The translations under genes were made by a program, and so were the position numbers. Shown piece after piece: positions 21,929 through 48,224 of a DNA stretch of 64,000 bases. The stretch's first letter is position 1; every line of letters begins with the position of its first letter. The notes beneath the pieces were generated by a model. The model saw only the letters and a program-made list of their open reading frames with translations. It did no database searches and was not told where the DNA came from. The stretch comes from Bacteroidota bacterium (GTDB lineage Bacteria; Bacteroidota; Ignavibacteria; Kryptoniales; JAKASW01), in assembly GCA_021845665.1 (NCBI GenBank), contig JAJZVO010000023.1, positions 1 through 64,000 of the forward strand. Direction: 5' to 3'.

Positions 21929-22011
21929 AGCGGCCACTACTACAAGCGCGCCCTTTTCTTGCTTGAAGTAATAGTAAGGTGTATCTTCAAGAAAACCGCG
22001 GATCCATTTCT

Positions 22012-24799: not shown

Positions 24800-25951
24800 A
24801 TGGAACAGATCAAATTCGAGTGCGAGGTAGTAACCCCTATGTTCCTCGGTGGGGCTGATCAACGGGCTGAATTGCGCGCGCCTTCTATACGCGGTGCCAT
24901 GCGGTGGTGGTTCAGGGCTATGATGGGAGGTAATCTCTTCGGCCGTTCGAGGGATTTTCTCAAAGAGGTAAAAGATATTGAAGACGCGACTTTCGGGAGC
25001 ACGTCTGGTCAAGGAAGTTTCTCTTTGTCTGTCGAGCATAATGGGATCAAAGAGAAGGACTTTAGTTCACTCAACGGTTTCTTCTTGACATACTTGGGGT
25101 TTGGTTTGAAGGATAATAAGCGAAGATACATCCCGCCACTTTTTCCCTTTGATGTCGTCTTCAGATTCCATTCCTCCGATAGCCAGATCAAGAAGCTAGT
25201 CTTGGCGACCTTCTGGATGCTCTCAAATTTCGGAAATTTAGGCGCGAGAGCTACACGCGGTTTTGGATCATTCATTGTGAAAACCCCATTGGGAGACAAC
25301 CTTCCTATTGTCGAAAGTGCTGACAAACTAGAAGAGGGTCTCAGATGCGTCGCAGGGGAGAAATATTTCAATATCCCTTCCACTCCAACCGTCACCACGG
25401 TCCCGGCGTTTTCGATTGTCTATCCCGGTTTCTGGCAATGCATCGTCCCCACAAGCAGTAAATTTCAAAACAGTGACGCTGTGCTGTTAATGAACACGAT
25501 AGGTAAAGAATTCAGATTGAGCCGAGAGAATACTAGTAGTTCATTTATGAAAACCATCGGCGGAAAGACAATCAAGGGTTTTCACACAAATGACTATGCA
25601 GCAATTTCAAAATGGTCACCGCCACCTGCTGGAGCACCAGGCACCACAATCCCGAGTCAGACAGCGTTTGGGCTGCCTCATCAATTCCAGGGCTCTGGCG
25701 GTCTAAAGATCATGGTTGAAGGTGAGAATCGGTCCAGGCGCACATCACCCCTTCATATTCACGTGCACAAATTTGGCAAGACTTATTCTGTCAGCTTTCA
25801 GGTTTTCAAGTCACAATTCCTTGATTCGAATATCAAGATTCGAGACATGAACAATGCGACTCGAACTGAAATTCTGAGTGGTACACCTTCATACTCAGAC
25901 CTCGATGCCTTCATGACAAGTTTCTCGGGCAAGAAGGACATAGTCCTATGA
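24800..25951 (+). CDS. cmr1: Cmr1, type III-B RAMP subunit
   Basis: 383 residues; AGGGAG lies about 12 bases before the ATG. The N-terminal RAMP strand FECEVVTPMFLGGADQ is followed by the diagnostic LRAPSIRGAMRWWFRAMMGG (about 28-47), and LGARATRGFGSF gives the glycine-rich loop. Cmr1 caps the 3' end of the crRNA in the Cmr complex and helps engage target RNA. It is the first gene of a tight operon; its stop overlaps the cmr2 start. Confidence 0.93.
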   Translation: MEQIKFECEVVTPMFLGGADQRAELRAPSIRGAMRWWFRAMMGGNLFGRSRDFLKEVKDIEDATFGSTSGQGSFSLSVEHNGIKEKDFSSLNGFFLTYLGFGLKDNKRRYIPPLFPFDVVFRFHSSDSQIKKLVLATFWMLSNFGNLGARATRGFGSFIVKTPLGDNLPIVESADKLEEGLRCVAGEKYFNIPSTPTVTTVPAFSIVYPGFWQCIVPTSSKFQNSDAVLLMNTIGKEFRLSRENTSSSFMKTIGGKTIKGFHTNDYAAISKWSPPPAGAPGTTIPSQTAFGLPHQFQGSGGLKIMVEGENRSRRTSPLHIHVHKFGKTYSVSFQVFKSQFLDSNIKIRDMNNATRTEILSGTPSYSDLDAFMTSFSGKKDIVL

Positions 25952-27822
25952 CATCTTCTAATTCCCTTCTCCTCTTTTCTCTAGGTCCTGTTCAGGACTT
26001 CATAGCAGCTTCTCGTAAGACCAAGGACCTTTTTGGAGGGAGCTTGCTCCTATCCTATCTCTCTGGAATTGCTATAGAAACCGTCTCAAAATACACAGTG
26101 AACGGCAAACCGCTCGGAGTCGAGTCAATCATTTTTCCGTCGTTGAAGCATGAGAAGATAACTCCCCTCGGCACAGCATTTCCCAACAGATTTCTCGCAA
26201 TAGTTCCATCTGAAGAAGTGAAAGGAATCGCTACCGCAGCCGAGAAGTCTGTCCGCGACAAGATGCAGGAAATAGCCAACGGCGTCATCTCCCTGGGCTC
26301 GGCCCATTCTCTAGTAAACGAGATAAAGAGTGCGGGTGTCGATCAATACAAGTCACAGGTTGAAAACTTTGTGGAGTGTTACTGGGCTGCAGTTGAGTGG
26401 AATGGAGTACCAGCCGATTATGGAAGTACTTATGAACGGGTGGAAGGTGCTCTTGGCCAGCGAAAGCTGATAAGGAATTTCAAACAGATCGCGGAGCAAG
26501 GTGAGAAGTGTTCGCTCATCCCATCGCTCGTGGATGTGGTTAACGCCAAATCAAGTGGCGGAAAAGAGCGTCTCTCAGGGGTCGCTATTGTAAAACGCTT
26601 TTTTCCAGACTGGCAAAAAGCGGAATCTAAATTTCCTTCAACCAGCACAGTAGCCGTTTCTGATTTCGTGAAGGACATCCTCTTGCTCAGTAAGCAGCAC
26701 GAGAAAATCCGTAATCTGGCAGGAACCTTTGCCGAGAAGGTAAAAGCGGTCACATCGGAATTTGCAAGCCAACCACTGCCAATGACAAAGACACTCGCCG
26801 ATCAGAACAACCTGTCCGAATTTGCCACAATTGACGGCGACTGGTTCTTCGAAGATCAGTACGAATCTGAAAACCTTAGGAAAGCTCTCGAGGAAGAGAA
26901 GTCGAACTGGATATATCCAAGAGGGCCGGCTACCGCGGCTAAAAATGCATTACGAGCGTTGCTCAAAGGAGCGAAGGAATTGGATATTAATTCTCCCTCG
27001 AAATACTACGCGGTTATAAGGTTCGACGGAGACAGGATGGGGAAGTGGTTATCGGGTGCTTTTAGAAACTCCGTCTCCATTGATGCACACCGGCAATTGA
27101 GCGACAAGCTTCTTGAATTCTCCGGCAAGCTGAAGGAAATTGTTGAACGCCGACATTGTGGCCAAATAGTCTATGCCGGGGGCGACGATGTCCTTGCATT
27201 TGTTACCTTGCGAGATTGTCTAAATGTCTCAAAGGACATTCGGGAGGCTTACGCAATCATGGAGAATGCCGCCGCTGGCGGGGCGGGGGAGAAACCCACC
27301 GGAAGTCTTGGCATAGTAATCGCCCACCATAAAGATGATCTTAAGTCTGTCATGACCGAATCTAGAAGCGCTGAACATTTTGCCAAGGAGGCAATAGGTC
27401 GTGATGCTGTTTCCATATCTCTCCTGAAGAGATCCGGTGATCACACCACCAGCGGGGCAAAATGGAAACTTGATGGAAATCTCGATACTGTTGAGATACT
27501 CAACCAGTTCGGTAACTTTGTGAAGAACCGTGATCTTGCCAAGGGATTCATCTATGATTATGCCACTGAGTCGGATGTGCTGTCTGATGTTAACGTAGAC
27601 GCTGCCGGACAAGAGTTCAAAAGGCTTTTCCTCCGCCGACTTTCGCAGAAGAAAAAGAAAGCCACACCAAAGGCTGAGATAGTTGAAACAGTTTCAAAAT
27701 TCTGGAAGCTTGCAAAACTCAAGTATGAACAAAAAGACGAAAACGAGAAAGTCATTGCGACTTATCCGGCCTTTCCTCTGTTCGCAGCTGCACAGTTCAT
27801 CGCGAAAGGAGGCAATCAATGA
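25948..27822 (+). CDS. cmr2: Cmr2 (Cas10), cyclic-oligoadenylate synthetase, HD-less
   Basis: 624 residues, short for Cas10/Cmr2 (commonly 700-1,000). The N-terminus LLLFSLGPVQDFIAASRKTKDLFGGS is the normal start of the Cmr2 palm-like region, so no N-terminal HD nuclease domain is present. RFDGDRMGKWL (about 358) belongs to the first nucleotide-binding site, and YAGGDDVLAF (GGDD about 411-414) is the intact catalytic palm motif that makes cyclic oligoadenylates from ATP. The complex should therefore signal rather than cut DNA directly, which fits the many CARF proteins nearby. The stop overlaps cmr3. Confidence 0.93.
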   Translation: MTSSNSLLLFSLGPVQDFIAASRKTKDLFGGSLLLSYLSGIAIETVSKYTVNGKPLGVESIIFPSLKHEKITPLGTAFPNRFLAIVPSEEVKGIATAAEKSVRDKMQEIANGVISLGSAHSLVNEIKSAGVDQYKSQVENFVECYWAAVEWNGVPADYGSTYERVEGALGQRKLIRNFKQIAEQGEKCSLIPSLVDVVNAKSSGGKERLSGVAIVKRFFPDWQKAESKFPSTSTVAVSDFVKDILLLSKQHEKIRNLAGTFAEKVKAVTSEFASQPLPMTKTLADQNNLSEFATIDGDWFFEDQYESENLRKALEEEKSNWIYPRGPATAAKNALRALLKGAKELDINSPSKYYAVIRFDGDRMGKWLSGAFRNSVSIDAHRQLSDKLLEFSGKLKEIVERRHCGQIVYAGGDDVLAFVTLRDCLNVSKDIREAYAIMENAAAGGAGEKPTGSLGIVIAHHKDDLKSVMTESRSAEHFAKEAIGRDAVSISLLKRSGDHTTSGAKWKLDGNLDTVEILNQFGNFVKNRDLAKGFIYDYATESDVLSDVNVDAAGQEFKRLFLRRLSQKKKKATPKAEIVETVSKFWKLAKLKYEQKDENEKVIATYPAFPLFAAAQFIAKGGNQ

Positions 27823-33126: not shown

Positions 33127-35409
33127 ATGAATCAGCAGTACAAATTTGAATGGGCGGAACAATCCTTGCGTTACGCGTTTCAAGGTATAGCTGCCAAAGG
33201 CTCCCGCGGAGGCATCGACAGAGTAACCGCAGAAGCCTATTCAAAGAACCTGCACTCAAATCTGTCAGCGCTGCTCAAACGCTTGCAGGAGGGGACTTAT
33301 GTTCCGTCACCCTATGAAAAGATATCCATACCAAAAGATGGCGGGTCGGTACGTATTCTCAGCCTCGCGACGGTCGAGGACAAAATAGTCCAGAGCATTG
33401 TAATGCATTATCTCGATGATACCTTCAAAGGCGTTTTTCTTGATTGCTCCTATGCTTACCGGGAAAACAAAGGCCATAAGAAAGCTATCGGCAGAGTCGA
33501 GCATTCACTCAGGGCTGCCCGCTCAGAGATGACTGCCGATGTAGACAATTTCTTTGACTCGATCGATCATTCAATCCTCGAATCCCAGCTTGCAGAAAGA
33601 ATCAAGGATGACCGGCTGCTCACACTAATCCGATTATGGATCACCACCGATTCTATCCATGATTCAAGACTCCAGAAAAGAAACATCGGCATTCCGCAGG
33701 GCGGACCCGTCTCGCCCATACTCTCGAACATCTACCTTTCTCCATTCGACAGGTTCATGGTCGGCCTCGGCAGGGCTTATATCCGCTATGCGGATAATTT
33801 CATTGTCTTCTCCGAAAACAAAAACGAGCTGGTCGAGATATTTAACCGGGCAGTCGATTACCTTCGCAGAAACCTCAGGCTCAGGCTCAACGAAGCAACT
33901 CCCGTGATATGTACTGAGGAGGAAGGCTTCGATTTTCTCGGCATCCATTTTAAAAACGGGAAGAGGACCATTGCCGACAGTAAGTTCACAAAGGCACTCA
34001 AGGAACCGGACGAGCTGAGGAGGAGACATCGTAAGGATAGCCTGGAGCGCTTGCGCGACCACTGGAACAAGATGGTACAATCATGGAGATTCTACTATGG
34101 GCCGTTTGACGTTGCAGAGCAGTTCTCATCACTAAGGCAGGAATTGCAAAAGAACCTCAGGCAGGAAATACTCTACCGGGCACAGCATGAAGAGATTCCC
34201 GAAGCAAAACTCGGAGAGATCATTTGTTCATTTGACTCCCTGACTGCGAACCCGAATGAGAACCGTGACTTTGCCGGAAGGATACTCGGTGAGATTAAGG
34301 AATTCCGAAAAGGGCGGGCCGACGGGAAGGAGGTACAGATTGCCCGAACGAGAGCCGCAAAAGTGAGGAAATTTATTCACCTCCACGTTGCCGAACACAA
34401 TCTCCTTGTGTCAACCCCGGGTTTCTTCATCGGAAGGTCGCAGGGAAAGATCCAGGTGAGGAAAGGACAGGAAGTTGTGACCGAACAACCCCTGCGAAGC
34501 ATTCACAATCTGATGCTTTCCGATCATGGCATCGGCATCTCCACCGATGTGATTGCCGAATGCGTTGAGAAGAAAACCCAGATTTTTATCGTGGACTCGA
34601 TCGGACATTACAGGGCGCTCATTATAGGAGACCCGTGGCCTCAGTTTAGCATCACTCTTTCCCAGGTCAATGCAGCCAACAGCTGGCTGGGCTCCCAGTG
34701 CGCGTTCAATTTCGTCGATGCGAAGATCAGGAATCAGGTCAACCTTCTTCGTTACTACGCCAAGTATCATTACGATGCAAACAGAAACTACGCTGAGGTC
34801 ATCTCCAAAGAAATCCCACGGATGGAGAAGGTGCTGACCGACATTTCCGCGCTGAATAGGAAAGGGTCTCTTCCAGGTGAGTACAATTCGGCAGTTTTCG
34901 GTCTTGAGGGACAGGCGGCCATTTCCTACTGGGCATGCATCGCCGCATTAATTGGAGACGAATGGGCCTTTACAAAGAGAGAACATCAGAACGCCGCAAA
35001 TATTGTTAACAAGATGCTCAATTACGGTTACGGCGTCCTGTCGTCGAAAATCCTCATCGCGATTATTTCGAGCGGATTGAACCCAATGATCAGCTTCCTG
35101 CATTCTGCCCAGGAAGGGAGACCATCTTTGGTCTTCGATGTCATGGAGCAATTCCGCCCCACTTGTGTGGACAGGGTCGTGGTCAGCATGTTGCTTCGAA
35201 AGGAAAGAGTCGAGAAAGACGGTGAGAAACTCCCGATCGAGCTGAGGAAAAGGATTGCCAGCGGGGTGCTGACGAAGATGGGCACTGAGTTCCAGTACCG
35301 CGGGAAAAGGCAGACAATCGAGGAAATACTGGCTAAACAGCTCGGCGATGTAGTCGAATTCCTCCAGGGGAAAACAAGAAACTTCAGGGCATTCCTCTCG
35401 AGATGGTGA
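33127..35409 (+). CDS. RT-cas1: reverse transcriptase-Cas1 fusion
   Basis: 760 residues. The N-terminal 330 or so are a group II intron-like RT: IDRVTAEAY, YEKISIPKDGGSVRILSL, the motif A aspartates in ADVDNFFDSIDH (about 137-148), GIPQGGPVSPILSNIY (188-203), and the active-site box YADN (221-224), where most RTs have YADD. The C-terminal 350 residues are a full Cas1: HNLLVSTPGFFIG, the catalytic Glu region VFGLEGQAAISYW, and SFLHSAQEGRPSLVFDVMEQFRP with the catalytic His and acidic residues. Fusions of this type let type III systems acquire spacers from RNA. There is no N-terminal Cas6 domain; cas6 is a separate gene. Confidence 0.95.
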   Translation: MNQQYKFEWAEQSLRYAFQGIAAKGSRGGIDRVTAEAYSKNLHSNLSALLKRLQEGTYVPSPYEKISIPKDGGSVRILSLATVEDKIVQSIVMHYLDDTFKGVFLDCSYAYRENKGHKKAIGRVEHSLRAARSEMTADVDNFFDSIDHSILESQLAERIKDDRLLTLIRLWITTDSIHDSRLQKRNIGIPQGGPVSPILSNIYLSPFDRFMVGLGRAYIRYADNFIVFSENKNELVEIFNRAVDYLRRNLRLRLNEATPVICTEEEGFDFLGIHFKNGKRTIADSKFTKALKEPDELRRRHRKDSLERLRDHWNKMVQSWRFYYGPFDVAEQFSSLRQELQKNLRQEILYRAQHEEIPEAKLGEIICSFDSLTANPNENRDFAGRILGEIKEFRKGRADGKEVQIARTRAAKVRKFIHLHVAEHNLLVSTPGFFIGRSQGKIQVRKGQEVVTEQPLRSIHNLMLSDHGIGISTDVIAECVEKKTQIFIVDSIGHYRALIIGDPWPQFSITLSQVNAANSWLGSQCAFNFVDAKIRNQVNLLRYYAKYHYDANRNYAEVISKEIPRMEKVLTDISALNRKGSLPGEYNSAVFGLEGQAAISYWACIAALIGDEWAFTKREHQNAANIVNKMLNYGYGVLSSKILIAIISSGLNPMISFLHSAQEGRPSLVFDVMEQFRPTCVDRVVVSMLLRKERVEKDGEKLPIELRKRIASGVLTKMGTEFQYRGKRQTIEEILAKQLGDVVEFLQGKTRNFRAFLSRW

Positions 35410-35820: not shown

Positions 35821-35834
35821 CTTTGAAAACCTGA
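35652..35834 (+). CDS. doubtful small ORF inside the leader
   Basis: 60 codons with GGAGGG about 6 bases before the ATG, a good ribosome-binding site. The product is basic, contains three cysteines and runs into the first CRISPR repeat before stopping. It resembles nothing known. It might be a fortuitous frame in the leader; the ribosome-binding site is the only positive evidence. Confidence 0.2.
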   Translation: MVKTTLRSSRVQISAKCEWSCERNEYGYVNCSDGASSAARGYLQRGDEIHNLLRKRSLKT

Positions 35835-37717
35835 CTTATGGTTGAAGGATGGAAACCAAAACAGATTTTAATGTTTCGCTGTCAAATGTTTCTTTGAAAA
35901 CCTGACTTATGGTTGAAGGATGGAAACAATCTCCACGAGACATTACCACACTAACTATCTTGTCCTTTGAAAACCTGACTTATGGTTGAAGGATGGAAAC
36001 AAATATGGAACAGTTTTTGCGGCGGTATACGCAAACCACTTTGAAAACCTGACTTATGGTTGAAGGATGGAAACGACCGTCAAAGTCCCCAATTAATCCG
36101 CGGTCGTGCATGTCTTTGAAAACCTGACTTATGGTTGAAGGATGGAAACCCTGGAGCCAATAGAAATAGGTTCCGGAAGGAAGACGCGCTTTGAAAACCT
36201 GACTTATGGTTGAAGGATGGAAACAGTCCGGACAGTCGTCGGGACACTGCTCGCAAGGGCACTTTGAAAACCTGACTTATGGTTGAAGGATGGAAACTGT
36301 CCTCCTCAATGTAGGAGGTGTGAAGTATCTGTATCTCTTTGAAAACCTGACTTATGGTTGAAGGATGGAAACTGTCCACGGCGCTCCAAGTAAGGCCGCC
36401 ATCGGTACTTTGAAAACCTGACTTATGGTTGAAGGATGGAAACAGAGATGTGATGTCCGCATTCCAATCGGTGGTATCTGGCTTTGAAAACCTGACTTAT
36501 GGTTGAAGGATGGAAACTCTGACTCAACGCGAAGGTTGTTGGAACAGGCGGGTTATCCTTTGAAAACCTGACTTATGGTTGAAGGATGGAAACGCGCAGA
36601 AGTGATGGTTCACGTCCGAACAAACGGCGACCTTTGAAAACCTGACTTATGGTTGAAGGATGGAAACGCCGGAGTTACTACACGTTTCGAGATACACCAC
36701 TGAATCGCTTTGAAAACCTGACTTATGGTTGAAGGATGGAAACGGGACATAATGTCTCGCACCTCGTGCTCGGTCACATCACCCTTTGAAAACCTGACTT
36801 ATGGTTGAAGGATGGAAACGAACTTTCCGGGCTATCAGTGTAACCACTAAAAAGGACCCTTTGAAAACCTGACTTATGGTTGAAGGATGGAAACAGATTG
36901 GTGAAAATCAGTTGCGGGGAACTTGCCGCTTTGAAAACCTGACTTATGGTTGAAGGATGGAAACAGTAGTACTGAGACCAATAAATATTTCCTACAGCTT
37001 CTGGCTTTGAAAACCTGACTTATGGTTGAAGGATGGAAACTCTGCGAGTTTCCGTCTTGCGGTAGTAGATGTAACCTACTTTGAAAACCTGACTTATGGT
37101 TGAAGGATGGAAACAGATAACCACCATAATCGCCGTTTGAATAACTAATATTCCCTTTGAAAACCTGACTTATGGTTGAAGGATGGAAACAAGCTGAACG
37201 TTGTGGCGACGGGCGGGTTATCAACGACCTTTGAAAACCTGACTTATGGTTGAAGGATGGAAACTATACAGCTCTTCCGCTGTCCCCTCGGGGAATTCCT
37301 CGGGCTTTGAAAACCTGACTTATGGTTGAAGGATGGAAACGCTTTTTTCGAGCTTTCTTCCAACCCCATGTCGTACTTTGAAAACCTGACTTATGGTTGA
37401 AGGATGGAAACTCTGTTCTTCAGAAGGTTTTCCATCGAAACACTTCCGTTTTCTTTGAAAACCTGACTTATGGTTGAAGGATGGAAACAATTTCTGGTCG
37501 ATAGGAGACCGACTGAACGGCTGCCTCGAGAGGCTTTGAAAACCTGACTTATGGTTGAAGGATGGAAACGTGGTCGCAGCGGTAGGTGGAATTTGGATCC
37601 ACCGCTTTGAAAACCTGACTTATGGTTGAAGGATGGAAACGAGAATTTGGCTGAACCTTCCCCGGTCGGTACCAATAAGACCTTTGAAAACCTGACTTAT
37701 GGTTGAAGGATGGAAAT
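35821..37717 (+). CRISPR. type III CRISPR array, 26 repeats and 25 spacers
   Basis: The 36-base repeat begins CTTTGAAAACCTGACTTATG and ends GTTGAAGGATGGAAAC. Repeat starts are at 35821, 35892, 35965, 36039, 36114, 36189, 36262, 36337, 36408, 36482, 36558, 36632, 36708, 36784, 36859, 36929, 37005, 37079, 37155, 37229, 37305, 37376, 37453, 37534, 37605 and 37682. Spacers are 34-45 bases, mostly 35-41. The repeats looked uniform except the last, which ends GGAAAT, marking the distal end. The expected crRNA 5' handle is ATGGAAAC. Spacers at 36518-36557 and 37191-37228 target related coding sequences. Confidence 0.98.
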
Positions 37718-37896
37718 TCCAAAGTTGCCCACTTAGACCGCGAAGCGGGGTAAGCGGCAGCAACTCTGAGAATCCCGCCGAAGGCTTACTCGAGGCGTCG
37801 ATCGATACCCGTTGGTTTGTAGTGCGCTTGTAAGTTTCGCTGAATCTTGCTATCGTATTTTCAACAATCGGTGCCTTAGATACGAGGTTGAGCAGA

Positions 37897-38367
37897 ATGG
37901 ACGAGTTCTTCGAACACTTGGAGTATGATCTGACAAGCCGGCTCTTGCATCAGCTTAGATTTGAAAAGAAGTTACAGAAGAGGTTGCGTTCGCGGAGAAA
38001 CGCGACCGAAGAGACGGATGATGCGTATTCTGACTATAGTTTAGGGACGATCTGGGTCGTTGACGACCACAAGGTGCATTTTCGCGGTCGGCGCGACGAA
38101 AAATCATATCATGACGGAAGGCGGCCAGGGGTAGTTATCGTCTCTCCCTGCAAAGAGACGCGTTACGAGGTCTGCTGGATCCCGGGATCATCCAAAATCG
38201 CGGGGCGACCTATAGCCCGTATAGTGGTCAGCGAGAACTCGGCCTATCTCTTGTGCGAAAAAGAGTGGTATCGTCCTCAGACTCTCGAATCGAAGAGAGG
38301 AGACTTGCCCCCCGACAAGCTTCTCGAACTGCGGCACAAATGGGATGAACTGGAATGCGATGAGTAA
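37897..38367 (+). CDS. PemK/MazF-like protein
   Basis: About 156 residues from the ATG at 37897, with GAGG about 10 bases upstream; a TTG at 37888 is in frame. After an N-terminal charged helical segment (about 1-45) comes a PemK/MazF-type SH3-like barrel: SLGTIWVVDD, RRPGVVIVSP, IARIVVSENSAYLL and a C-terminal helix LPPDKLLELRHKWDEL. MazF-family proteins are usually mRNA interferases, but a homologue serves as the sigma-binding partner in the CalpL-CalpT-CalpS type III signalling module. It overlaps the sigma-like gene by eight bases and is the first gene after the CRISPR array. Confidence 0.65.
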   Translation: MDEFFEHLEYDLTSRLLHQLRFEKKLQKRLRSRRNATEETDDAYSDYSLGTIWVVDDHKVHFRGRRDEKSYHDGRRPGVVIVSPCKETRYEVCWIPGSSKIAGRPIARIVVSENSAYLLCEKEWYRPQTLESKRGDLPPDKLLELRHKWDELECDE

Positions 38368-39364
38368 CCGCTTTCAGGATAACCTGGCAGAACTTGTAAC
38401 TCTTATCCGCAAGCTCCGAAATGAATCTACTCTGAAGCCGAAAGAGCACGCGAGTGTTAACAAGCGGTTTGATCGAGTTCTTGCCGAGTTCGTTCACTCT
38501 ATGGCGTCCTCATACTCAACTTACCCCTATACATTAGATGAGTTCAAGGATCTCCTGGGAGAAGTTCAAAAGAACATCGCAACAAATCTTCTTAGAAAAG
38601 ATGCCTTTGAAAATGGAGATACCATCGACGGAGCCCCCGACGATCGGATTAAAGGATGGATAAAAACAACCACGAGTAACGCGCTCAGGAACGACCCCTC
38701 CCCTCAAAAGAGAGACTATCGTTACCTGTTGACGACAATCAATAACACTCTGAAGAGGATGGAAAATTCAGGAGAATTTGACTCTTCTAAAATTGTGGAA
38801 TATCGTTTTGAAGAGTTGAGACGAAAGATTCTTAATGAGATTGACGTGTCAGAGTCCAAAGGGAAAAGCCTTGCCAGGAAGGTCGCAGAAATTGCGAGGA
38901 GGATACTAAAATTGGCCGGCGGTATGATCGAGCGACGCGATTTGAATGATTTGGTTAGCGAGATCACTGGCATTTACAAACCCGTCAAGGAGAGTCCTGG
39001 AGACGAGTCGAACAAGAATGTTGTCGATGATATTCCATCGGTTGACGATTTACCAAAAGAGATAATCATTGACATTGAGTCTGCAACCGAACGCCTTCTG
39101 ACACGCCTCGAAGGGCGGAAGGATCCACGATTGTTGCCAATACTTTGCTATAAATTTGTTCATGAGTTGACTTATAGGGAGATTCAATCGAGGACTAAGA
39201 TACCGAAGCAGACTCAGGATTTTCTTCTTAAACGAAGGATACTACCAGATCTCTACAACGCGATCAAGAATTGCAGCAGGGATCCCGACTATAGAATCGT
39301 TGCAAAGTTTCGTGAAAAGGTTTTAGAAGGTTTGAGCAAAAGGGGGATACAATGCGAAGCCTGA
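38360..39364 (+). CDS. sigma-factor-like protein
   Basis: About 334 residues from the ATG at 38360, overlapping the previous stop. Residues about 45-115 resemble sigma region 2 (LDEFKDLLGEVQKNIATNL, RIKGWIKTTTSNALRND). Near the C-terminus, LLPILCYKFVHELTYREIQSRTKIPKQTQDFLLKRRILPDL reads as a region 4-type helix-turn-helix. The two parts are separated by a long charged, helical linker, so it is larger than an ECF sigma factor (about 180-200 aa). It would redirect RNA polymerase once freed from an inhibitor. The next gene starts 13 bases before its stop, the usual arrangement for sigma/anti-sigma pairs. The sigma call is from motif resemblance. Confidence 0.6.
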   Translation: MSNRFQDNLAELVTLIRKLRNESTLKPKEHASVNKRFDRVLAEFVHSMASSYSTYPYTLDEFKDLLGEVQKNIATNLLRKDAFENGDTIDGAPDDRIKGWIKTTTSNALRNDPSPQKRDYRYLLTTINNTLKRMENSGEFDSSKIVEYRFEELRRKILNEIDVSESKGKSLARKVAEIARRILKLAGGMIERRDLNDLVSEITGIYKPVKESPGDESNKNVVDDIPSVDDLPKEIIIDIESATERLLTRLEGRKDPRLLPILCYKFVHELTYREIQSRTKIPKQTQDFLLKRRILPDLYNAIKNCSRDPDYRIVAKFREKVLEGLSKRGIQCEA

Positions 39365-40545
39365 GCCAGAGAAAGGGCAAATCGCAACGTCTCCCGGAGA
39401 TTCCGGACAGATATGAGATTGCCGAGTATGTTCAGGGGAGACTTTCAAAAAGCCGGCGAAAGCAGATAAAAGAGTTGCTTGAGTCTGATGACCCTGTTGC
39501 AATAGGTGTGAAGATTGACTTTGAAGAAATAAAGAGCCGTATTAAAGCCATGCCCTTCAGACCGCTTTCTAGTAATGCAACCGGTGTGCTTCAAGCTCGC
39601 ATGCAGGCGGTCCTCAGACATTCAGGGATGCCAGCCCCGGGGGAAATATGGTCACTTCAGTTGCAGAAATCTAATTCCGGGATCTCCAGAGATCGATCCG
39701 TTTTGATCTTTCATATCCATGGCGGATTCGCGCGAGTTGCACCAGTGACTAAGGAAACCGATTTTGCCGGTCCGCGTGATATTATTGTGCGCGACCGATC
39801 CTATGCCTTCGTGCCTTTCATGCTCGAGTTGTTCGCGTCATTCTGGACTGATTTGAGTCTGCTAACTGATCAAGGCGAATTCGAAGCCCGTGTTTCAGAG
39901 AAGACTCTTTCTGCAGCACGTAGAGCGGACAGGGGCATCTATAGCAATTTGCCTCGCGGCGTCAGACGCGGCTCCGTCCAGGAAATATCAGACATTGAAG
40001 AGTTCCATGAGGAATGGCGAGAAGGAGAGCGGATGCTCTTTGAAAAATTCAAAACAACACCGTACGTGCTGGAAGAATTCGAAGCGGCTGATGTCGAGAA
40101 GGTAGCTGAACCACAGTCGATACCCATCCCTGTCTCTTTCATTTCGTACCAACAGCCCACGCAATACGTGTACCGTCTCGCCGCGGCTGACCAGACATTC
40201 ACGGTCTCTGAATTCCAATTCTGGGAAAAGGAAAGGGGCCTTTCTGGCCAAATGCGTCGCCTCATTCTCCAGGCCCCATCCTTTGAAGTGCGTGTCTCGA
40301 TAGTCGATGGCCACCTCTTCTTGGTTGCTGAACGAGCCGACAAGTCACCGAAGATTGTATCAGACGTTTCCTTGTCCAGTGGTGAAACAAACATTCTCAC
40401 TACGGAGAACTCCGTTCAGTTCTCAACATCCCAGAGAGTTCATCTTCATTTTGATGTTGATCCTGCACTCCCTCTCACAGGGCGGTGGATTTTGCGTTTC
40501 AGCCTTGATGATAAGGGGTATCAGAACGAGGTCGAATTCAAATGA
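39352..40545 (+). CDS. PemK/MazF-core protein, candidate anti-sigma factor
   Basis: 397 residues. The N-terminal 55 residues (RYEIAEYVQGRLSKSRRKQIKELLES) look like the helical sigma-binding segment of cytoplasmic anti-sigma factors, without the zinc ligands. Residues about 95-145 have a PemK/MazF-like barrel: GEIWSLQLQKSNSGISRDRSVLIF, FARVAPVTKETDFAGPRDIIV. The remainder is an unrecognised beta-rich region with an Ig-like end (TGRWILRFSLDDKGYQNEVEF). Position between a sigma-like gene and a Lon-like protease gene mirrors CalpS-CalpT-CalpL, where a MazF homologue holds the sigma factor until cleaved. The anti-sigma role is an inference. Confidence 0.55.
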   Translation: MRSLSQRKGKSQRLPEIPDRYEIAEYVQGRLSKSRRKQIKELLESDDPVAIGVKIDFEEIKSRIKAMPFRPLSSNATGVLQARMQAVLRHSGMPAPGEIWSLQLQKSNSGISRDRSVLIFHIHGGFARVAPVTKETDFAGPRDIIVRDRSYAFVPFMLELFASFWTDLSLLTDQGEFEARVSEKTLSAARRADRGIYSNLPRGVRRGSVQEISDIEEFHEEWREGERMLFEKFKTTPYVLEEFEAADVEKVAEPQSIPIPVSFISYQQPTQYVYRLAAADQTFTVSEFQFWEKERGLSGQMRRLILQAPSFEVRVSIVDGHLFLVAERADKSPKIVSDVSLSSGETNILTTENSVQFSTSQRVHLHFDVDPALPLTGRWILRFSLDDKGYQNEVEFK

Positions 40546-41714
40546 ACATCGTGCGACGCGAGCAGGAAGCACAAGGTCACCTTGAGCTGGGCAACTATCG
40601 ACAAGCACAGGAAATCTACAAAGAACTTGCAGAGAACGAAAGCGATCTTAGTTCGAAGAACCACTTCAACGATTCTGCAAATGCTGCCGAGGCGTTTGCC
40701 ACAGAATTCACTGGCTTGCGTGTGGGAGAAGCCCTATGTCCTATCGTCGACAAGAGGACAGGTCATGGTTGTCTCTGTGTAGTCCAAACGGGTAAAGTGC
40801 GTGACTTACATGGCCGCCTCGTTTCGCAGTCCATCGGGACCTCATTTGAACTGTTTCCTCAGCTGATGTTGAATTGGACGCCGGTAACGGAACTAATTGC
40901 AACTTTCCTTTCTCCTCTGGTAAGTTCGTTCGGGAGATTATCGGTACTCAACTGGGGTTGGGATTGTTGGAAGCCTTCAGTTCGCAAATTGCCACACCGC
41001 TCTAATGAGAGAGCCAAGGATCCACAAGGTGAGTCATCTCAACTGGCCATGGCATTGGCGATTATATCTGAAATTACCTCCAGGCCCATCGGTGCGGGAT
41101 TTGCATTCACAGGAAGACTTGTAACGGAGGGAGGAAAGGTTTGCGTAGAACGGGTTGAAGACATTGCTGAGAAAGTCAGAGTATCCCTGAAGGAACTGCC
41201 TCAGGTAGGAACGATATTTGTTCCTCATTCAAATGAGCGTGAGGCACTTCAGGAAGCTCGGCAGATCGGAAAAGAAGCGCAGACAAGAGCCGTGTCAACT
41301 CTCGAAGAGGTTATCGAAGTTGTTTTCCCGGGCTTCAATGCGGATTTCTTGCGGATGGTTGAGGACAGGCACATCGGATCTGATTGGCTGTATCTGGACC
41401 TAAGAGAGAATTCTGAACATGTTCTGCAGTTCGAGTCTCTCCGAAACGGTTCCGCTTTGGTCGATCATAAAACAATTGGGTCTATTCAATTGCCCTCGCT
41501 TCCTGATGGGACTCGGGGGCTAATCTTAAATGGCCCGTTGCCTATTTTTCTAACATCCACGCTGACTCCAAGATATATTAGACACTATCAGATTTTTTTC
41601 GCGGTGAGTCTTGGCAAGGACCGGAAGTACGCGGTCGTCACCGCCGGACATGCGCTCGCGCCTCGACAAGTTGGAGATGTTGTTTCATTCGAGCCGTCTC
41701 CGGAACAAGACTGA
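40542..41714 (+). CDS. TPR-Lon-like protease with Csx3-like C-terminal domain
   Basis: 390 residues; the ATG overlaps the preceding stop. Residues 1-35 look like one TPR repeat. About 160-245 align with the Lon proteolytic domain: GESSQLAMALAIISEIT matches GPSAG..., FAFTGRL matches the MTGE strand, and EDIAEKV matches KEKL. The catalytic dyad would be Ser165 and Lys211, both present, with a three-residue insertion compared with E. coli Lon. Residues about 315-390 (LPSLPDGTRGLILNGPLPIF, FFAVSLGKDRKYAVVTAGHA, VGDVVSFEP) resemble Csx3, a cyclic tetra-adenylate-binding protein. There is no AAA module and no SAVED domain. It is probably a ligand-controlled protease. Confidence 0.65.
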   Translation: MNIVRREQEAQGHLELGNYRQAQEIYKELAENESDLSSKNHFNDSANAAEAFATEFTGLRVGEALCPIVDKRTGHGCLCVVQTGKVRDLHGRLVSQSIGTSFELFPQLMLNWTPVTELIATFLSPLVSSFGRLSVLNWGWDCWKPSVRKLPHRSNERAKDPQGESSQLAMALAIISEITSRPIGAGFAFTGRLVTEGGKVCVERVEDIAEKVRVSLKELPQVGTIFVPHSNEREALQEARQIGKEAQTRAVSTLEEVIEVVFPGFNADFLRMVEDRHIGSDWLYLDLRENSEHVLQFESLRNGSALVDHKTIGSIQLPSLPDGTRGLILNGPLPIFLTSTLTPRYIRHYQIFFAVSLGKDRKYAVVTAGHALAPRQVGDVVSFEPSPEQD

Positions 41715-41721
41715 CGCGACC

Positions 41722-43041
41722 ATGAAAGAAAACGTCCTCTTTTCTACCCTGGGTGTCACCGCCCCTGTAATCTCAGAAACAATCAACTTGCTTGAGGCCG
41801 AGGGAAAATCGATTAACAAACTTGTAGTCGTTCACACCTCCTTCAAAGACGTTCTTCACAAACAAACTCCATCAGGGAAAGATATAGGGCTCGTGGCACT
41901 GAAGGAGTATATCGGAAGTAAACGCGGCAACATCGCGGTTGAATCAATAGACTTGGGGATTGAAGACATTCTCACGGAAAATGATAACACAAAGGTCCTC
42001 CACGTTTTGATGAATGCCATCGAGGAGGAAAGAAATAAGCAAAACACTGTCTATGTAAGCATCGCTGGCGGGCGAAAAACGATGTCCGCCGCCGCCTTGT
42101 TTGCCGCTTATGCAGTAGGCTGTGACGGAATATATCATGTCCTGGTTAATGGCAGAGAAGAGGAACTTACAGACGCATATGGTTTCGATGTTCCACTGGA
42201 TAAGCTTACTCTGATTAGAATTCCTCCAGTCAATCTTTCACTGATGTTGAAGACGGTGATTGAGGAGATTGACACAAACAACCTCTTTCGCGGAGATATC
42301 TCTGCATATCTGCAGGATAAGGAGAGAGTTGAAGAAGTATTCAGTTATCTAAACGACGGATTACGGGCGTCACTGGATCTGCGTAAACTTCACGAGGAAC
42401 ATAACCGGCGTTATTCGCTTTACGAGAGAATGAACCAAACCGTTCTCGCTATCCTGCAAGGCCGGATCCGGAAATCCGCGGTTATGAAACCGCAATATGA
42501 GAGCAGGGTGAAAACCTTCGAAAGCTTCATACGGAAAATTGCCGAGAAACGGGGCAGAGGAGAAACGTTCCAAGATCCGTTCGAAAGGATACATGACCTA
42601 TCGGCGGTCAGAATTGTCACGTACTTTCAAGAGGATCTGGATACCCTCGAAAAGATGATCGATGGCATGATTACCGAACGGGTGGATTTTGAACCTTATC
42701 CCGATCCCGACAAGGCAAAAAAGATTAAGAAGCCGGAGGTGGTTGGATATACCGGAATTCATTATCTGGTCGGACTTCGCCCCGATCGGACAGCTCTCCT
42801 GGAATATGAAAGGCTGTCCGGATTATGGTGTGAAATTCAGCTCAAGACAATTTTCGATCATGCCTGGTCCCAGGTCGATCATCGTCTCCGGTTCAAGTCA
42901 GAAGAATTCCATGCGATGTCGAAAGAACAAAAGGACGAAGTCCTGGCGGTGTTCGCAGATGCGGCCAGGTTGTTGAACGAAAGCAAAGCCGTTTTCAGTA
43001 CTCTGCGCGAAACTTACGAGCATTTCAGAAAAGAGACCTAG
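41722..43041 (+). CDS. CARF-RelA/SpoT alarmone synthetase fusion
   Basis: About 439 residues from the ATG at 41722; an upstream frame at 41611 lies inside the protease gene. The N-terminal half is a CARF fold of the NE0113-like group: LFSTLGVTAPVISETINLL and VSIAGGRKTMSAAALFAAY (about 112-130). The C-terminal half is a (p)ppGpp synthetase domain with all key motifs: SRVKTFESF (R262, K264), IHDLSAVRI (D292), GYTGIHYLV (Y343, H347) and EIQLKTIFDHAWSQVDH (E371, Q373). A helical linker (about 175-250) joins them. No HD hydrolase domain is present. Binding of cyclic oligoadenylate to CARF would switch on alarmone synthesis, or tRNA pyrophosphorylation as in toxSAS enzymes, and so cause growth arrest. 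Confidence 0.85.
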   Translation: MKENVLFSTLGVTAPVISETINLLEAEGKSINKLVVVHTSFKDVLHKQTPSGKDIGLVALKEYIGSKRGNIAVESIDLGIEDILTENDNTKVLHVLMNAIEEERNKQNTVYVSIAGGRKTMSAAALFAAYAVGCDGIYHVLVNGREEELTDAYGFDVPLDKLTLIRIPPVNLSLMLKTVIEEIDTNNLFRGDISAYLQDKERVEEVFSYLNDGLRASLDLRKLHEEHNRRYSLYERMNQTVLAILQGRIRKSAVMKPQYESRVKTFESFIRKIAEKRGRGETFQDPFERIHDLSAVRIVTYFQEDLDTLEKMIDGMITERVDFEPYPDPDKAKKIKKPEVVGYTGIHYLVGLRPDRTALLEYERLSGLWCEIQLKTIFDHAWSQVDHRLRFKSEEFHAMSKEQKDEVLAVFADAARLLNESKAVFSTLRETYEHFRKET

Positions 43042-43128: not shown

Positions 43129-43521
43129 ATGCTTATCAACCTCTCAAATCACCCGCTAACAGCATGGGATAACTCGCAGCGACATGCCGCACAAGAAGAG
43201 TACGGTCTGTTAGCCGACCTTCCGTTCCCACCTGTTCCAGCTAACGCCGGGTTGCAGGAAGTCCAACAGAAAGTGGAAGAATACATTTCGCTCTGTCAGG
43301 CTATGTTTGACGATTACTTCCAGACCGGAGGAATTGCTGACAAGAATCGCAACGCAATACATGTTATGGGGGAATTCACTTTCGTCTATTTGTTTGTTGC
43401 CCGTTGCCGGAAGTTGTCGATTCCGTGTGTCGCGTCCACCACGGATCGCATTGTTGTCGATAATACGGACGGTTCCAAGACAACCCGCTTCAACTTCTTG
43501 CAATTCAGGCCTTACTTCTAA
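43129..43521 (+). CDS. small CRISPR-associated protein, candidate ring nuclease
   Basis: 130 residues. MLINLSNHPLTAWDNSQ, YGLLADLPFPPVPANA and the C-terminal VVDNTDGSKTTRFNFLQF give a Rossmann-like pattern seen in short proteins encoded next to type III effector genes, some considered candidates for cyclic-oligoadenylate ring nucleases (Csx15-like). The resemblance is from memory and no catalytic residues are established. It lies between two CARF effector genes and ends one base before the next ATG, so it could limit the lifetime of the signal. Confidence 0.45.
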   Translation: MLINLSNHPLTAWDNSQRHAAQEEYGLLADLPFPPVPANAGLQEVQQKVEEYISLCQAMFDDYFQTGGIADKNRNAIHVMGEFTFVYLFVARCRKLSIPCVASTTDRIVVDNTDGSKTTRFNFLQFRPYF

Positions 43522-43522
43522 G

Positions 43523-45163
43523 ATGTCCCAACCAAGAAGAAATATTCTCGTTGCCGTTGTAGGTATGACCCCGCAAGTGGTCACGGAAACACTCTATGCA
43601 CTGGAGGTGGAACAGCGTATAAAAGTGTCAGAGACTTATGTTATCACTACCGAAGAGGGCAAGAAGAATATCCTGGGTGACAAAGGCCTACATTCTCTTG
43701 CTGATGAAATCGCAAGACTATCACAAATATATGAATGTCAGCTTCCAACTTTTTCCGTTGAGAAGAACTGCATCACCGTCGAAGATGAAAGCTTTCAGAT
43801 TGCTGACATCGATTCGGCCGAGAAGAGTCTCGCCTTCTTCAACGCGATGACAGAGTTCGTTCGCAATTTGTCCGCTGATTCCAACTCAGCGATACATTGC
43901 TCCATAGCAGGCGGTCGTAAAACAATGGGCCTCGCTGCCGGCTATGCTATGTCGCTTTTCGGCCGCCCTCAAGACACACTGTCTCATGTCTTGGCTAGCA
44001 AGGAACTTGAAGACAGTAAGAAATTCTTCCCAGAGCCAGGCCATGATGCCGAAAAGGTTGTCCTTGTCGAGATACCTTTCATCCGGCTGAGGGACTTCAT
44101 TGACATAGAGTTGTCAAAAGGATCATACTCTGATTTTGTAAGTCTTGCTCAAGCTAGGGTTGATATTCGAACCGGTGATTTCGGTGCACGATTCGGTATC
44201 ATAGGCCACTCCCCGAAAATGATTGATGTTTTTTCGAGAATAGAGGATTACTCGGAATCGGATTACCCCATCTTGATTATCGGAGAGACTGGGACAGGAA
44301 AAGAACTCGTCGCACGCGCAATTCACCAAAACAGCAATCGAGCTGAATCAGAATTTGTCGCGGTGAATTGTGGGTCAGTTTCTCACGACCTTCTTGAGAG
44401 TGAACTATTCGGTCACGTCAAAGGTGCATTTACGGGAGCAGGTCAAGATAGAGCTGGCTTTTTCGAAACAGCTGACAATGGCACGATCTTCCTTGATGAG
44501 GTAACCGAGACTGATTCTAATTTTCAGAAAAATCTTCTTCGCGTTCTTCAGGAAGGAGAATACCGCCGAGTTGGCGAGACTCTCCTCAGGAAAACAAATG
44601 CACGGGTCATCGCAGCAACTAATCGAGTTGATCTAAGAAGAGAGATCACCGGTGGGGATTTCCGCCAAGACCTTTACTACCGGCTCGATGTCTTGCGCAT
44701 TTCGATCCCACCATTGAGAGAGAGAAAAGAGGATATACCCGAACTGGTCGATTACTTCCTCATGAAGCACTCTAAAAAGGTAGGGAAAAGTTTTGACGGT
44801 CTATCCCCAGTTTTTCAGGACGCACTCCAATCTTATGATTATCCTGGAAATGTTCGCGAATTAGAGAACAACATCATCCAGACGGTTGTTGGCACTGGCG
44901 GCAAGACCATTACCGACAAATATCTTGGCCAAGAGATTAAAGATGCGTGGTCGAGGATCTTAGCTACCATAGTTATTGAAGAACCTCCCGAGACCATTCT
45001 GCCATTTGAAGATATGAAGAAACATTGGCTGATCCACGTACTTCGCATAACTCGCGGCAATCGCTCGAAGGCTGCTCAGTTAATGCAACTCGACTATGAC
45101 ACTGTTCTAAACTGGATTAAGAAGTACGGAATAGAAGAGCACCATTACCGAAATACTCGGTAA
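43523..45163 (+). CDS. CARF-sigma54 AAA+ enhancer-binding transcription activator
   Basis: About 546 residues from the ATG at 43523. The N-terminus is an NE0113-type CARF domain (ILVAVVGMTPQVVTETLYAL; HCSIAGGRKTMGLAAGYAM). From about 230 a complete sigma54-interaction AAA+ domain follows: Walker A GETGTGKE (about 254), the sigma54-contact loop GAFTGA (about 301), Walker B GTIFLDEV, FRQDLYYRLDVLRISIPPLRERKEDI, and YPGNVRELEN. The C-terminal Fis-type helix-turn-helix is NRSKAAQLMQLDYDTVLNWIKKYGI. The layout matches RtcR, a CARF-containing sigma54 activator, but with a CRISPR-type CARF. Ligand binding should allow it to remodel sigma54-RNA polymerase at target promoters. Confidence 0.9.
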   Translation: MSQPRRNILVAVVGMTPQVVTETLYALEVEQRIKVSETYVITTEEGKKNILGDKGLHSLADEIARLSQIYECQLPTFSVEKNCITVEDESFQIADIDSAEKSLAFFNAMTEFVRNLSADSNSAIHCSIAGGRKTMGLAAGYAMSLFGRPQDTLSHVLASKELEDSKKFFPEPGHDAEKVVLVEIPFIRLRDFIDIELSKGSYSDFVSLAQARVDIRTGDFGARFGIIGHSPKMIDVFSRIEDYSESDYPILIIGETGTGKELVARAIHQNSNRAESEFVAVNCGSVSHDLLESELFGHVKGAFTGAGQDRAGFFETADNGTIFLDEVTETDSNFQKNLLRVLQEGEYRRVGETLLRKTNARVIAATNRVDLRREITGGDFRQDLYYRLDVLRISIPPLRERKEDIPELVDYFLMKHSKKVGKSFDGLSPVFQDALQSYDYPGNVRELENNIIQTVVGTGGKTITDKYLGQEIKDAWSRILATIVIEEPPETILPFEDMKKHWLIHVLRITRGNRSKAAQLMQLDYDTVLNWIKKYGIEEHHYRNTR

Positions 45164-46415: not shown

Positions 46416-48224
46416 ATGAAGTCAATCTTAGATTTTATGTTCGGTTTGATGTATGCGTTCAGAGGCCGTCCACTCCAAATTGCTGAGGAAACTCGGCGCA
46501 ACCAGCTTCTGGCGAAAGCTCCCCTCTCGGTATCGCCCGCGTCCTTTCAAATACAACCTGACGGAGAGGTCATTCATGTTACCGAGGACACAGCCGATGA
46601 TCAACCTGACGATGAAGATGAGCTCAGTCTCAGGCGGCTTATCGGTCAAAAATCGATTCAAAGAATCATCCGCCACGTGCAGGAGCTGGGCGAGCGGCTA
46701 AGTCAACTCATTCTCGAGAGGACAGAGAAAGCAGCCCAGCTTGACGAACTCCGAGCCGCATCTCGCTCATCCATGCTTGACTCCGGCGGAGAACTCGAGC
46801 ACAAGCGCCGCGACCGCAAACGGCTCATTCCATTAATGATATTAACCGCGCTCGCGGCAATCCTTTTTGATGCCTTCACTCTCGCTGACTGCGTGACGGG
46901 CCTCGATATCTCGAATTTGTTCCGGGCCGGTCCACTTTCAATATTCACAACTTCTGTCCTTTCGCTCGGGATGTTCTTCGTGCAATACTGGGCGGCGCAC
47001 CTTTTCAGCGAGGAGAAAACAACCCACAAAATATCAGGCATATTTGTCCTGGTATCCTTGGCTTTCATCCTCATGATGTTCAGATTGCATGAAAATTACG
47101 GGGCTGGTCTGCAAGCATCATCGCAGATTACGGATTTTCTTGGCGCCCTCTTTTTCCTTCTTACGGTGAGCTTGGCTTTACTCTTTCACTCCCTTTACCA
47201 AGAATCCCGTCAAATTCAAAAATGGCTTGATATGTACGATGGAAATCTCAAGGCAAGGAGACAGGCTGAACTGGAATTACAAGCCGAAACGAGATCCATC
47301 GACGAGCGAATACAAGAATGCGAAAGAGAGATTGAAAGCGATATAAGAGAATTCGAGAACGCCCACCGCGCAGAGGAATCCAGAAAGGAAACTGAGGCAC
47401 AACGGTCAGATGCCTTTGCAAAAAGGCTTCTTGCCCGTCTTGCCACGTTCCGCTTCGGCTACCTGATGGGAGAACGAACAAAGAAGGCCCCGGCACTCAA
47501 ACCAGTACTCGTGGCTTCGATAATAATTCCGCTCCTTTTCCTCCTCTTCGGGTGCGGCTATTACGCTAATCGTGGTGGAGCTGATTGCGAGGTTATCACA
47601 GACCAGAGCACATCGGTCGGAAGCTACCACATAAACTCCGCTGAACTCGCTGAGATCGGCACCTCATGGGTTCACGACGCTGAGAGAATGGGTGGCGGCA
47701 GATTTGAAATATTGCTGGTCGGCCATTCCTTCGACGATGTGCCGGTACTTTTTTCCCAGGATTACCCAACACGGTTTCCTGCACCCATAAGTGAAAGCAA
47801 GGCCAGGTGGGGAAGGCAATTCATTGCTCGCCTCAGCGGAGTCGCCGACAGCCTGCCTCAAAATGGAGGCTCGGCGATAGCCGAGGCAATTTACCGGGCC
47901 TCACTTCGAATTCCCGACAAAGGGGAAACCACAATCTTTGTCTACTCCGACCTTCGGGAAGTGAACAGGAGATTCGATCTGGAGAGGAACGTTCCCACTT
48001 ATACGGAGTTTGCAGACTGGCTCAAAGGGGATGGTATATCTCCAGTATTTCCGAAAGACACTCGATTGCAGGTAATCGGAGTTCACCCTTACAGCGGGCC
48101 GAACACTTCCAGACTGACTGCCCAAAACTACGATAAAACAATTCGACTCTGGGAGCAGGTTTTCAAAAGCTGGAAAGTTAAAGCATCAATCTCAGAGACT
48201 TTGAACTTGAATTCGATCCAATAA
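46416..48224 (+). CDS. five-helix membrane protein with coiled coils and a vWA-like domain
   Basis: 602 residues. A cytoplasmic N-terminus with a coiled coil (about 75-115) is followed by four hydrophobic segments (about 133-155, 172-196, 205-225, 237-260), a second coiled coil (about 265-345), and a fifth segment (VLVASIIIPLLFLLFG, about 366-381). The C-terminal 215 residues begin CEVITDQSTSVG, where DQSTS matches the DxSxS metal site (MIDAS) of von Willebrand A domains, and continue with IFVYSDLREV in the place of the second conserved Asp. The function is unknown. The next gene starts 22 bases downstream and is probably its partner. Confidence 0.6.
   Translation: MKSILDFMFGLMYAFRGRPLQIAEETRRNQLLAKAPLSVSPASFQIQPDGEVIHVTEDTADDQPDDEDELSLRRLIGQKSIQRIIRHVQELGERLSQLILERTEKAAQLDELRAASRSSMLDSGGELEHKRRDRKRLIPLMILTALAAILFDAFTLADCVTGLDISNLFRAGPLSIFTTSVLSLGMFFVQYWAAHLFSEEKTTHKISGIFVLVSLAFILMMFRLHENYGAGLQASSQITDFLGALFFLLTVSLALLFHSLYQESRQIQKWLDMYDGNLKARRQAELELQAETRSIDERIQECEREIESDIREFENAHRAEESRKETEAQRSDAFAKRLLARLATFRFGYLMGERTKKAPALKPVLVASIIIPLLFLLFGCGYYANRGGADCEVITDQSTSVGSYHINSAELAEIGTSWVHDAERMGGGRFEILLVGHSFDDVPVLFSQDYPTRFPAPISESKARWGRQFIARLSGVADSLPQNGGSAIAEAIYRASLRIPDKGETTIFVYSDLREVNRRFDLERNVPTYTEFADWLKGDGISPVFPKDTRLQVIGVHPYSGPNTSRLTAQNYDKTIRLWEQVFKSWKVKASISETLNLNSIQ

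What the first reader, a model, noticed from the sequence alone, without database searches (positions are those of the whole stretch)
40542..41714. Lon-like protease with Ser-Lys dyad joined to a Csx3-like domain instead of SAVED
Ser165 and Lys211 align with the Lon dyad, and the last 75 or so residues resemble Csx3, a cA4-binding fold. CalpL uses a SAVED sensor and a membrane anchor; this protein has neither. If the reading is right it is an independent design of a cyclic-nucleotide-gated protease beside a MazF-like/sigma pair.
Basis: partly seen in the sequence, partly recalled or inferred. Interest (0 to 1): 0.88.

Follow-up and report, generated by a model that had tools for sequence, protein, structure and literature searches.

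The report
CRISPR protease with dead-Csx3 sensor
A bacterial CRISPR immune locus carries a protein-cutting enzyme that, instead of the usual alarm-signal sensors, bears a Csx3-type domain that has lost its signal-destroying residues, and it always sits beside a sigma-factor-like gene and two MazF-like genes, so viral attack probably rewires gene expression through a sensor not yet described in this role.

Summary
The ORF at 40542-41714 has a Lon (S16) protease domain with the Ser165-Lys211 dyad and a C-terminal Csx3-like domain. It has no SAVED domain and no transmembrane helix. Twelve more full-length homologues from Bacteroidota genomes (16-27% identical) share this layout, and both dyad residues are invariant in 13 of 13. 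The C-terminal profile matches genuine Csx3 at 96.5% hhalign probability; decoys and shuffles stay below 1%. The residues Csx3 needs to cut cA4 (H57, H60, D69, R71, H80) are not conserved in this family, so it looks like a sensor derived from a ring nuclease.

The gene closes a conserved four-gene cassette: small MazF-like protein, sigma-like protein, CalpT-like protein of probable MazF fold, Lon-Csx3. Of 11 carrier genomes in the class, 9 have Cas10, against 15% in the class; Cas10 or another CRISPR gene is often within 2-27 kb.

The best reading is a Calp-type relay (second messenger, protease, cleaved anti-sigma, released sigma factor) whose SAVED sensor is replaced by a catalytically dead Csx3. 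Gating by cA4 and cleavage of the 39352-40545 product are inferred, not shown. I found no description of this fusion.

The parts
37888..38367 (+). small MazF-like protein (159 aa, TTG start), gene 1 of the cassette
   Evidence: Profile of 10 orthologues matches MazF structures at E=2e-8; 5 of 10 hit Pfam PemK_toxin; overlaps gene 2
38345..39364 (+). sigma-factor-like protein (339 aa; presumed CalpS counterpart), gene 2
   Evidence: ECF-like region-2 and region-4 patterns by eye; local hhalign puts the C-terminus on region 4 (P=0.001) and the global alignment is colinear with own-genome sigma factors; one orthologue hits Sigma70_r4_2 weakly. Weakest assignment of the four.
39352..40545 (+). CalpT-like protein (397 aa; orthologues 287-485 aa), presumed anti-sigma and protease substrate, gene 3
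   Evidence: Conserved 'GQIW' start of a divergent MazF-like domain, colinear over 102 columns with MazF (hhalign 26-29%, decoys at or below 0.3%); always directly upstream of Lon-Csx3 except in the permuted G281 copy
40542..41714 (+). Lon-Csx3 fusion (390 aa), gene 4
   Evidence: ATGA overlap with gene 3
40719..41327 (+). Lon protease domain (residues about 60-262)
   Evidence: Profile alignment to 1xhk (positions 52-239 of the family profile)
41034..41036 (+). codon of catalytic Ser165
   Evidence: aligned to the AfLonB Ser; 13 of 13 conserved
41172..41174 (+). codon of catalytic Lys211
   Evidence: aligned to the AfLonB Lys; 13 of 13 conserved
41460..41687 (+). Csx3-like domain (residues about 307-382) lacking the Crn3 catalytic residues
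41722..43041 (+). CARF-RelA/SpoT fusion (neighbouring cOA-type effector)
   Evidence: Cas_NE0113 1.9e-22 and RelA_SpoT 3.8e-17
43129..43521 (+). Csx20 (family tested as a cA4 ring nuclease)
   Evidence: NCBIfam NF040559 33 bits, below its cut-off of 70; PADLOC Csx20 2e-32
43523..45163 (+). CARF-RtcR type sigma-54 activator
   Evidence: PADLOC RtcR_PspF2--CARF_AAA_HTH 9e-105
25948..27822 (+). Cas10 with GGDD cyclase motif, no HD nuclease motif seen
   Evidence: PF22335 7e-33; GGDD at residue 411
33127..35409 (+). reverse transcriptase-Cas1 fusion
35821..37717 (+). CRISPR array, 26 repeats of 36 nt; the cassette starts just downstream

Best explanation
The cassette is a Calp-type signal relay of a type III CRISPR system. 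Cas10 (GGDD cyclase present) detects foreign RNA and makes a cyclic oligoadenylate, most likely cA4. The Csx3-like domain of the Lon-Csx3 protein binds it without destroying it, because the Crn3 catalytic residues are gone. Csx3 dimers are known to sandwich cA4 head to tail, and a catalytically dead Csx3 mutant forms fibres with cA4; such ligand-bridged stacking would bring Lon domains together and switch on the Ser165-Lys211 protease, as cA4-driven filaments do for CalpL. The protease then cuts the neighbouring MazF-fold protein (39352-40545), which holds the sigma-like protein (38345-39364), and the freed sigma factor changes transcription. The small MazF-like protein is either a second subunit of the held complex or a released toxin. 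Csx20 resets the signal. Shown here: domains, dyad, conservation, cassette, CRISPR linkage, loss of ring-nuclease residues. Inferred: ligand, oligomerisation, substrate, sigma release.
For: Lon dyad invariant in 13 of 13. Csx3 homology with controls. All five Crn3 catalytic or cA4-contact residues lost while genuine Csx3 domains of the same class mostly keep them (residue roles from PMC7371418). Four-gene cassette in the same order in nearly every locus read, permuted in one. Nine of 11 carriers in the class have Cas10 against 30 of 197 sampled (Fisher P about 1e-6). Cas10 1.7-27 kb away in six genomes; RT-Cas1 or CARF genes near others. Csx20 beside the cassette in several loci. CalpL/T/S mechanism with a MazF-like 23-kDa CalpT fragment (PMC11417357, PMC9704534). 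The CalpT-like orthologues L019, L052, L053, L055 and L056 (287-302 aa) are about the 33 kDa of CalpT.
Against: The cA4-contacting side chains of Csx3 (R46, R71, H80) are not conserved, so cA4 binding is not supported by residues. The sigma assignment is weak and the MazF fold of the presumed substrate is only moderately supported. Two genomes (G251, G433) carry the cassette without any Cas10 or SMODS cyclase, so some copies must work without type III signalling or be relics.
Confidence: 0.6

Rival explanations
1. Toxin release instead of sigma release: the protease frees a MazF-type RNase (the small 37888 protein or the MazF-like domain of 39352-40545), and arrest rather than transcription is the output.
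For: Two MazF-like genes in every cassette read; the small one is clearly MazF by profile (E=2e-8). This was also the first proposal for CalpT (PMC9704534).
Against: Does not explain the sigma-like gene always present in the cassette; CalpT was later shown to be an anti-sigma factor (PMC11417357).
Confidence: 0.2
2. The Csx3-like domain does not sense a nucleotide. It is a protein-docking module (Csx3 resembles STAS/anti-sigma antagonist folds) that brings the protease to its substrate, and the trigger is something else.
For: Ligand-contact residues are not conserved; cassettes exist in genomes without Cas10; fold resemblance of Csx3 to STAS domains is stated in PMC12409355.
Against: Profile comparison finds Csx3, not STAS (96.5% against 0.1%); strong Cas10 association.
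Confidence: 0.15
3. A ring-nuclease fusion that limits its own signal, like Crn2-Csx1, where the Csx3 domain destroys cA4 while another site senses it.
For: Genuine Csx3 is a ring nuclease; self-limiting fusions exist (PMC7293037, listed; PMC12409355).
Against: H57, H60, D69, R71 and H80 are not conserved in the family, and there is no second sensor domain in the protein.
Confidence: 0.05

Closest known systems
CalpL/CalpT/CalpS (SAVED-Lon, type III CRISPR)
   Same: Lon Ser-Lys protease with a C-terminal sensor, MazF-fold substrate candidate, sigma-like gene, same type III context; several members hit PADLOC SAVED_LON and CRISPR-Lon profiles
   Different: Sensor is a Csx3-like domain of about 75 residues, not SAVED; no membrane anchor; an extra small MazF-like gene; 390 aa
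CARF-Lon effectors (PADLOC CARF_LON; predicted only)
   Same: Another sensor swap on a CRISPR Lon protease
   Different: CARF instead of Csx3-like sensor
Crn3/Csx3 ring nuclease and Csx3-AAA fusions
   Same: Homologous domain by profile
   Different: Catalytic and cA4-contact residues lost; fused to a protease, C-terminal rather than N-terminal
Type III-E Craspase module (Csx29/Csx30/Csx31/CASP-sigma)
   Same: CRISPR protease plus three genes including an anti-sigma and a sigma factor; four-part logic (PMC10028731)
   Different: Csx29 is a TPR-CHAT protease bound to the effector and switched by RNA, not by a second messenger; no homology tested

Membership tests
Lon (S16) protease domain | Ser-Lys catalytic dyad | tested here: met
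   Ser165/Lys211 aligned to AfLonB, invariant in 13 of 13
Lon (S16) protease domain | Homology over the protease domain | tested here: met
   Family profile against 1xhk E=8e-17 over positions 52-239
Lon (S16) protease domain | AAA+ ATPase domain of full-length Lon | tested here: not met
   No AAA match in P0001; hence not a housekeeping Lon
CalpL (SAVED-Lon) | C-terminal SAVED domain | tested here: not met
   No SAVED match in any member; Csx3-like domain instead
CalpL (SAVED-Lon) | Activation by cA4 and cleavage of CalpT | not testable with these tools
   needs a protease assay
Calp system | Neighbouring CalpT with MazF-like domain | tested here: inconclusive
   hhalign 26-29%, colinear, decoys at or below 0.3%; no real CalpT sequence was available
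Calp system | Neighbouring sigma factor | tested here: inconclusive
   weak region-4 match
Crn3/Csx3 | Csx3 domain homology | tested here: met
   hhalign 96.5%, controls below 1%; only significant PDB match
Crn3/Csx3 | Ring-nuclease residues H57, H60, D69, R71, H80 | tested here: not met
   not conserved in the 13 copies of the domain compared; kept in most genuine Csx3 of the same class
MazF/PemK (gene at 37888) | MazF homology | tested here: met
   family profile against MazF structures E=2e-8
Type III CRISPR accessory effector | Linkage to cas10 loci | tested here: met
   9 of 11 carriers against 15% baseline

The most novel reading that the evidence does not exclude
A ring nuclease fold has been turned into a pure second-messenger sensor: a catalytically dead Csx3 gates a Lon protease that controls a sigma factor, as a third kind of sensor (beside SAVED and CARF) on CRISPR Lon effectors, in a four-gene cassette not described before; the altered pocket may mean a ligand other than cA4.
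Probability: 0.55. Interest if true: 0.72.

Novelty: new variant of a known kind. Interest (0 to 1): 0.63.

Why it matters
A 2025 survey states that type III second-messenger sensors are almost exclusively CARF and SAVED domains (PMC12669027); Csx23 and the Cap1 CARF-like domain are among the few exceptions. If the Csx3-like domain senses, the same fold serves as off-switch in one protein and on-switch in another, which shows how new effectors arise. It would also make proteolytic release of a sigma factor a recurring output of CRISPR signalling (SAVED-Lon, Craspase, now Csx3-Lon), and would give a small soluble protease (390 aa) that may be controlled by a cyclic nucleotide and is easy to test.

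Tried and rejected
Homologue searches in plasmids, viral contigs and, with the single protein, genome contigs found nothing; whole-genome profile searches did. SAVED-Lon was sought in 296 Bacteroidota genomes without success at E 1e-20, though nothing rang in the controls either, so absence is not shown. STAS homology of the C-terminus rejected. Membrane anchoring rejected. CBASS as an alternative signal source in the two Cas10-free carriers: no SMODS cyclase found. The CalpT-like protein has no match in PDB by sequence. Chance gene proximity rejected by Fisher test and repeated gene order.

Full report
Observation. The ORF 40542-41714 encodes 390 residues. Pfam finds Lon_C at 162-262 above its cut-off and Cas_csx3 at 307-381 just below its cut-off. 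Ser165 and Lys211 fall on the Lon dyad in the alignment to AfLonB. Residues 1-60 are helical-looking, with one TPR-like repeat by eye (not tested). No SAVED domain and no transmembrane helix were found.

Relatives. A protein search of 100 related genomes gave two full relatives, one in a Melioribacter MAG and one in Melioribacteraceae SCALA702. Profile searches of 395 phylum and 391 class genomes then gave more, and flanks were read from the genomes. Thirteen full-length members, window protein included, are known; the others are 16-27% identical to it. Ser165 and Lys211 are invariant in all of them. A fourteenth copy (G281) is split over two contigs.

Csx3 domain. The family profile matches Lon structures and, separately, Csx3 structures. 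The C-terminal part alone has Csx3 as its only significant PDB match. Against nine genuine Csx3 sequences (eight found in the same class, plus AF_1864), hhalign gives 96.5%, and 95.9% without the window protein. Shuffles, MazF, sigma, CalpT-like and STAS alignments give under 1%. In A. fulgidus Csx3, H57 and H60 are proposed to bind metal, D69 is catalytic, R71 and H80 contact cA4, and the enzyme works by sandwiching cA4 between dimers; the H60A mutant forms fibres with cA4 (PMC7371418). None of these residues is conserved here, while most genuine Csx3 domains of the class keep them. The domain is therefore very unlikely to be a Crn3-type ring nuclease. Whether it binds cA4 cannot be told from residues.

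Cassette. In nearly every locus read the gene order is: small protein of 147-167 aa, sigma-like protein of 338-397 aa, CalpT-like protein of 287-485 aa, Lon-Csx3; in G281 the order is permuted, with Lon-Csx3 first, and in SCALA702 the contig ends inside the sigma-like gene. In the window the genes overlap by 23, 13 and 4 bases, pointing to one operon. The small protein is MazF-like. The CalpT-like protein begins its conserved part with GQIW and aligns colinearly with MazF, with modest score; its orthologues L019, L052, L053, L055 and L056 (287-302 aa) are about the size of CalpT (33 kDa). The sigma assignment rests on pattern and weak profile scores.

CRISPR link. The window holds a III-B-like set with GGDD Cas10, RT-Cas1 and a 26-repeat array ending 170 bases before the cassette. 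Cas10 lies 1.7-27 kb from the cassette in six genomes. Nine of 11 carriers in the class have Cas10 against 30 of 197 sampled (Fisher P about 1e-6). RT-Cas1 (L053) and a CARF protein (L096) lie near other copies. Csx20, tested as a cA4 ring nuclease in PMC12409355, is next to the cassette in the window, L025, L053, L054 and L055 (in the loci other than the window by the conserved MLINLSNHP start, by eye). G251 and G433 have the cassette but no Cas10 and no SMODS cyclase.

Mechanism. CalpL binds cA4 through SAVED, forms oligomers, cuts the anti-sigma CalpT and so leads to release of CalpS (PMC11417357, PMC12751052). The parts found here fit the same relay with a Csx3-like sensor. Several members also hit PADLOC SAVED_LON, CRISPR-Lon and CARF-Lon profiles, so the Lon part belongs with the known CRISPR Lon effectors. 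Steps not shown: ligand, activation, substrate, sigma release.

Novelty. Papers searched and the passages read in the 2024-2025 surveys do not mention a Lon-Csx3 fusion; the library lacks most subscription papers and the supplementary files could not be read, so absence is not proof. CARF-Lon and SAVED-Lon are known (PMC9704534), which makes this a new variant of a known kind rather than a new kind.

Noticed in passing
41722-43041: CARF domain fused to a RelA/SpoT-type synthetase directly downstream of Lon-Csx3, with no HD hydrolase partner. A CARF-RelA next to an HD-domain gene is in L098 (9667-11351), like the 'pppGpp hydrolase + RelA' system UAS-50 of PMC10910872.
   Followed up: partly
43523-45163: CARF fused to a sigma-54 activator (RtcR/PspF type) in the same locus, so two separate transcription outputs may share one signal.
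   Followed up: no
46416-48224; L052 4931-6716; L053 11294-13064; L097 3259-5359; L098 8-1611; L023 4179-5114: A membrane or coiled-coil protein with, or beside, a von Willebrand A-like protein with a DxS motif recurs near the cassette in at least six loci; only one copy hits Pfam VWA_2 weakly. Possible further arm of the system.
   Followed up: partly
L021, L022 (genomes G433, G251): Complete four-gene cassette between housekeeping genes (serine-tRNA ligase-like, PriA-like) in genomes without Cas10, while a genome of the same genus (G663, L096) has it beside a CARF gene.
   Followed up: partly
P0002 residues 15-65 (39394-39546); L020, L054 N-termini: Some CalpT-like proteins carry an N-terminal stretch that looks like an anti-sigma domain by eye ('EYVQGRLSKSRRKQIKELLESD'); missing in shorter orthologues.
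   Followed up: no
21979-23487: CARF-like protein with a C-terminal coiled coil upstream of the cmr genes, by eye.
   Followed up: no
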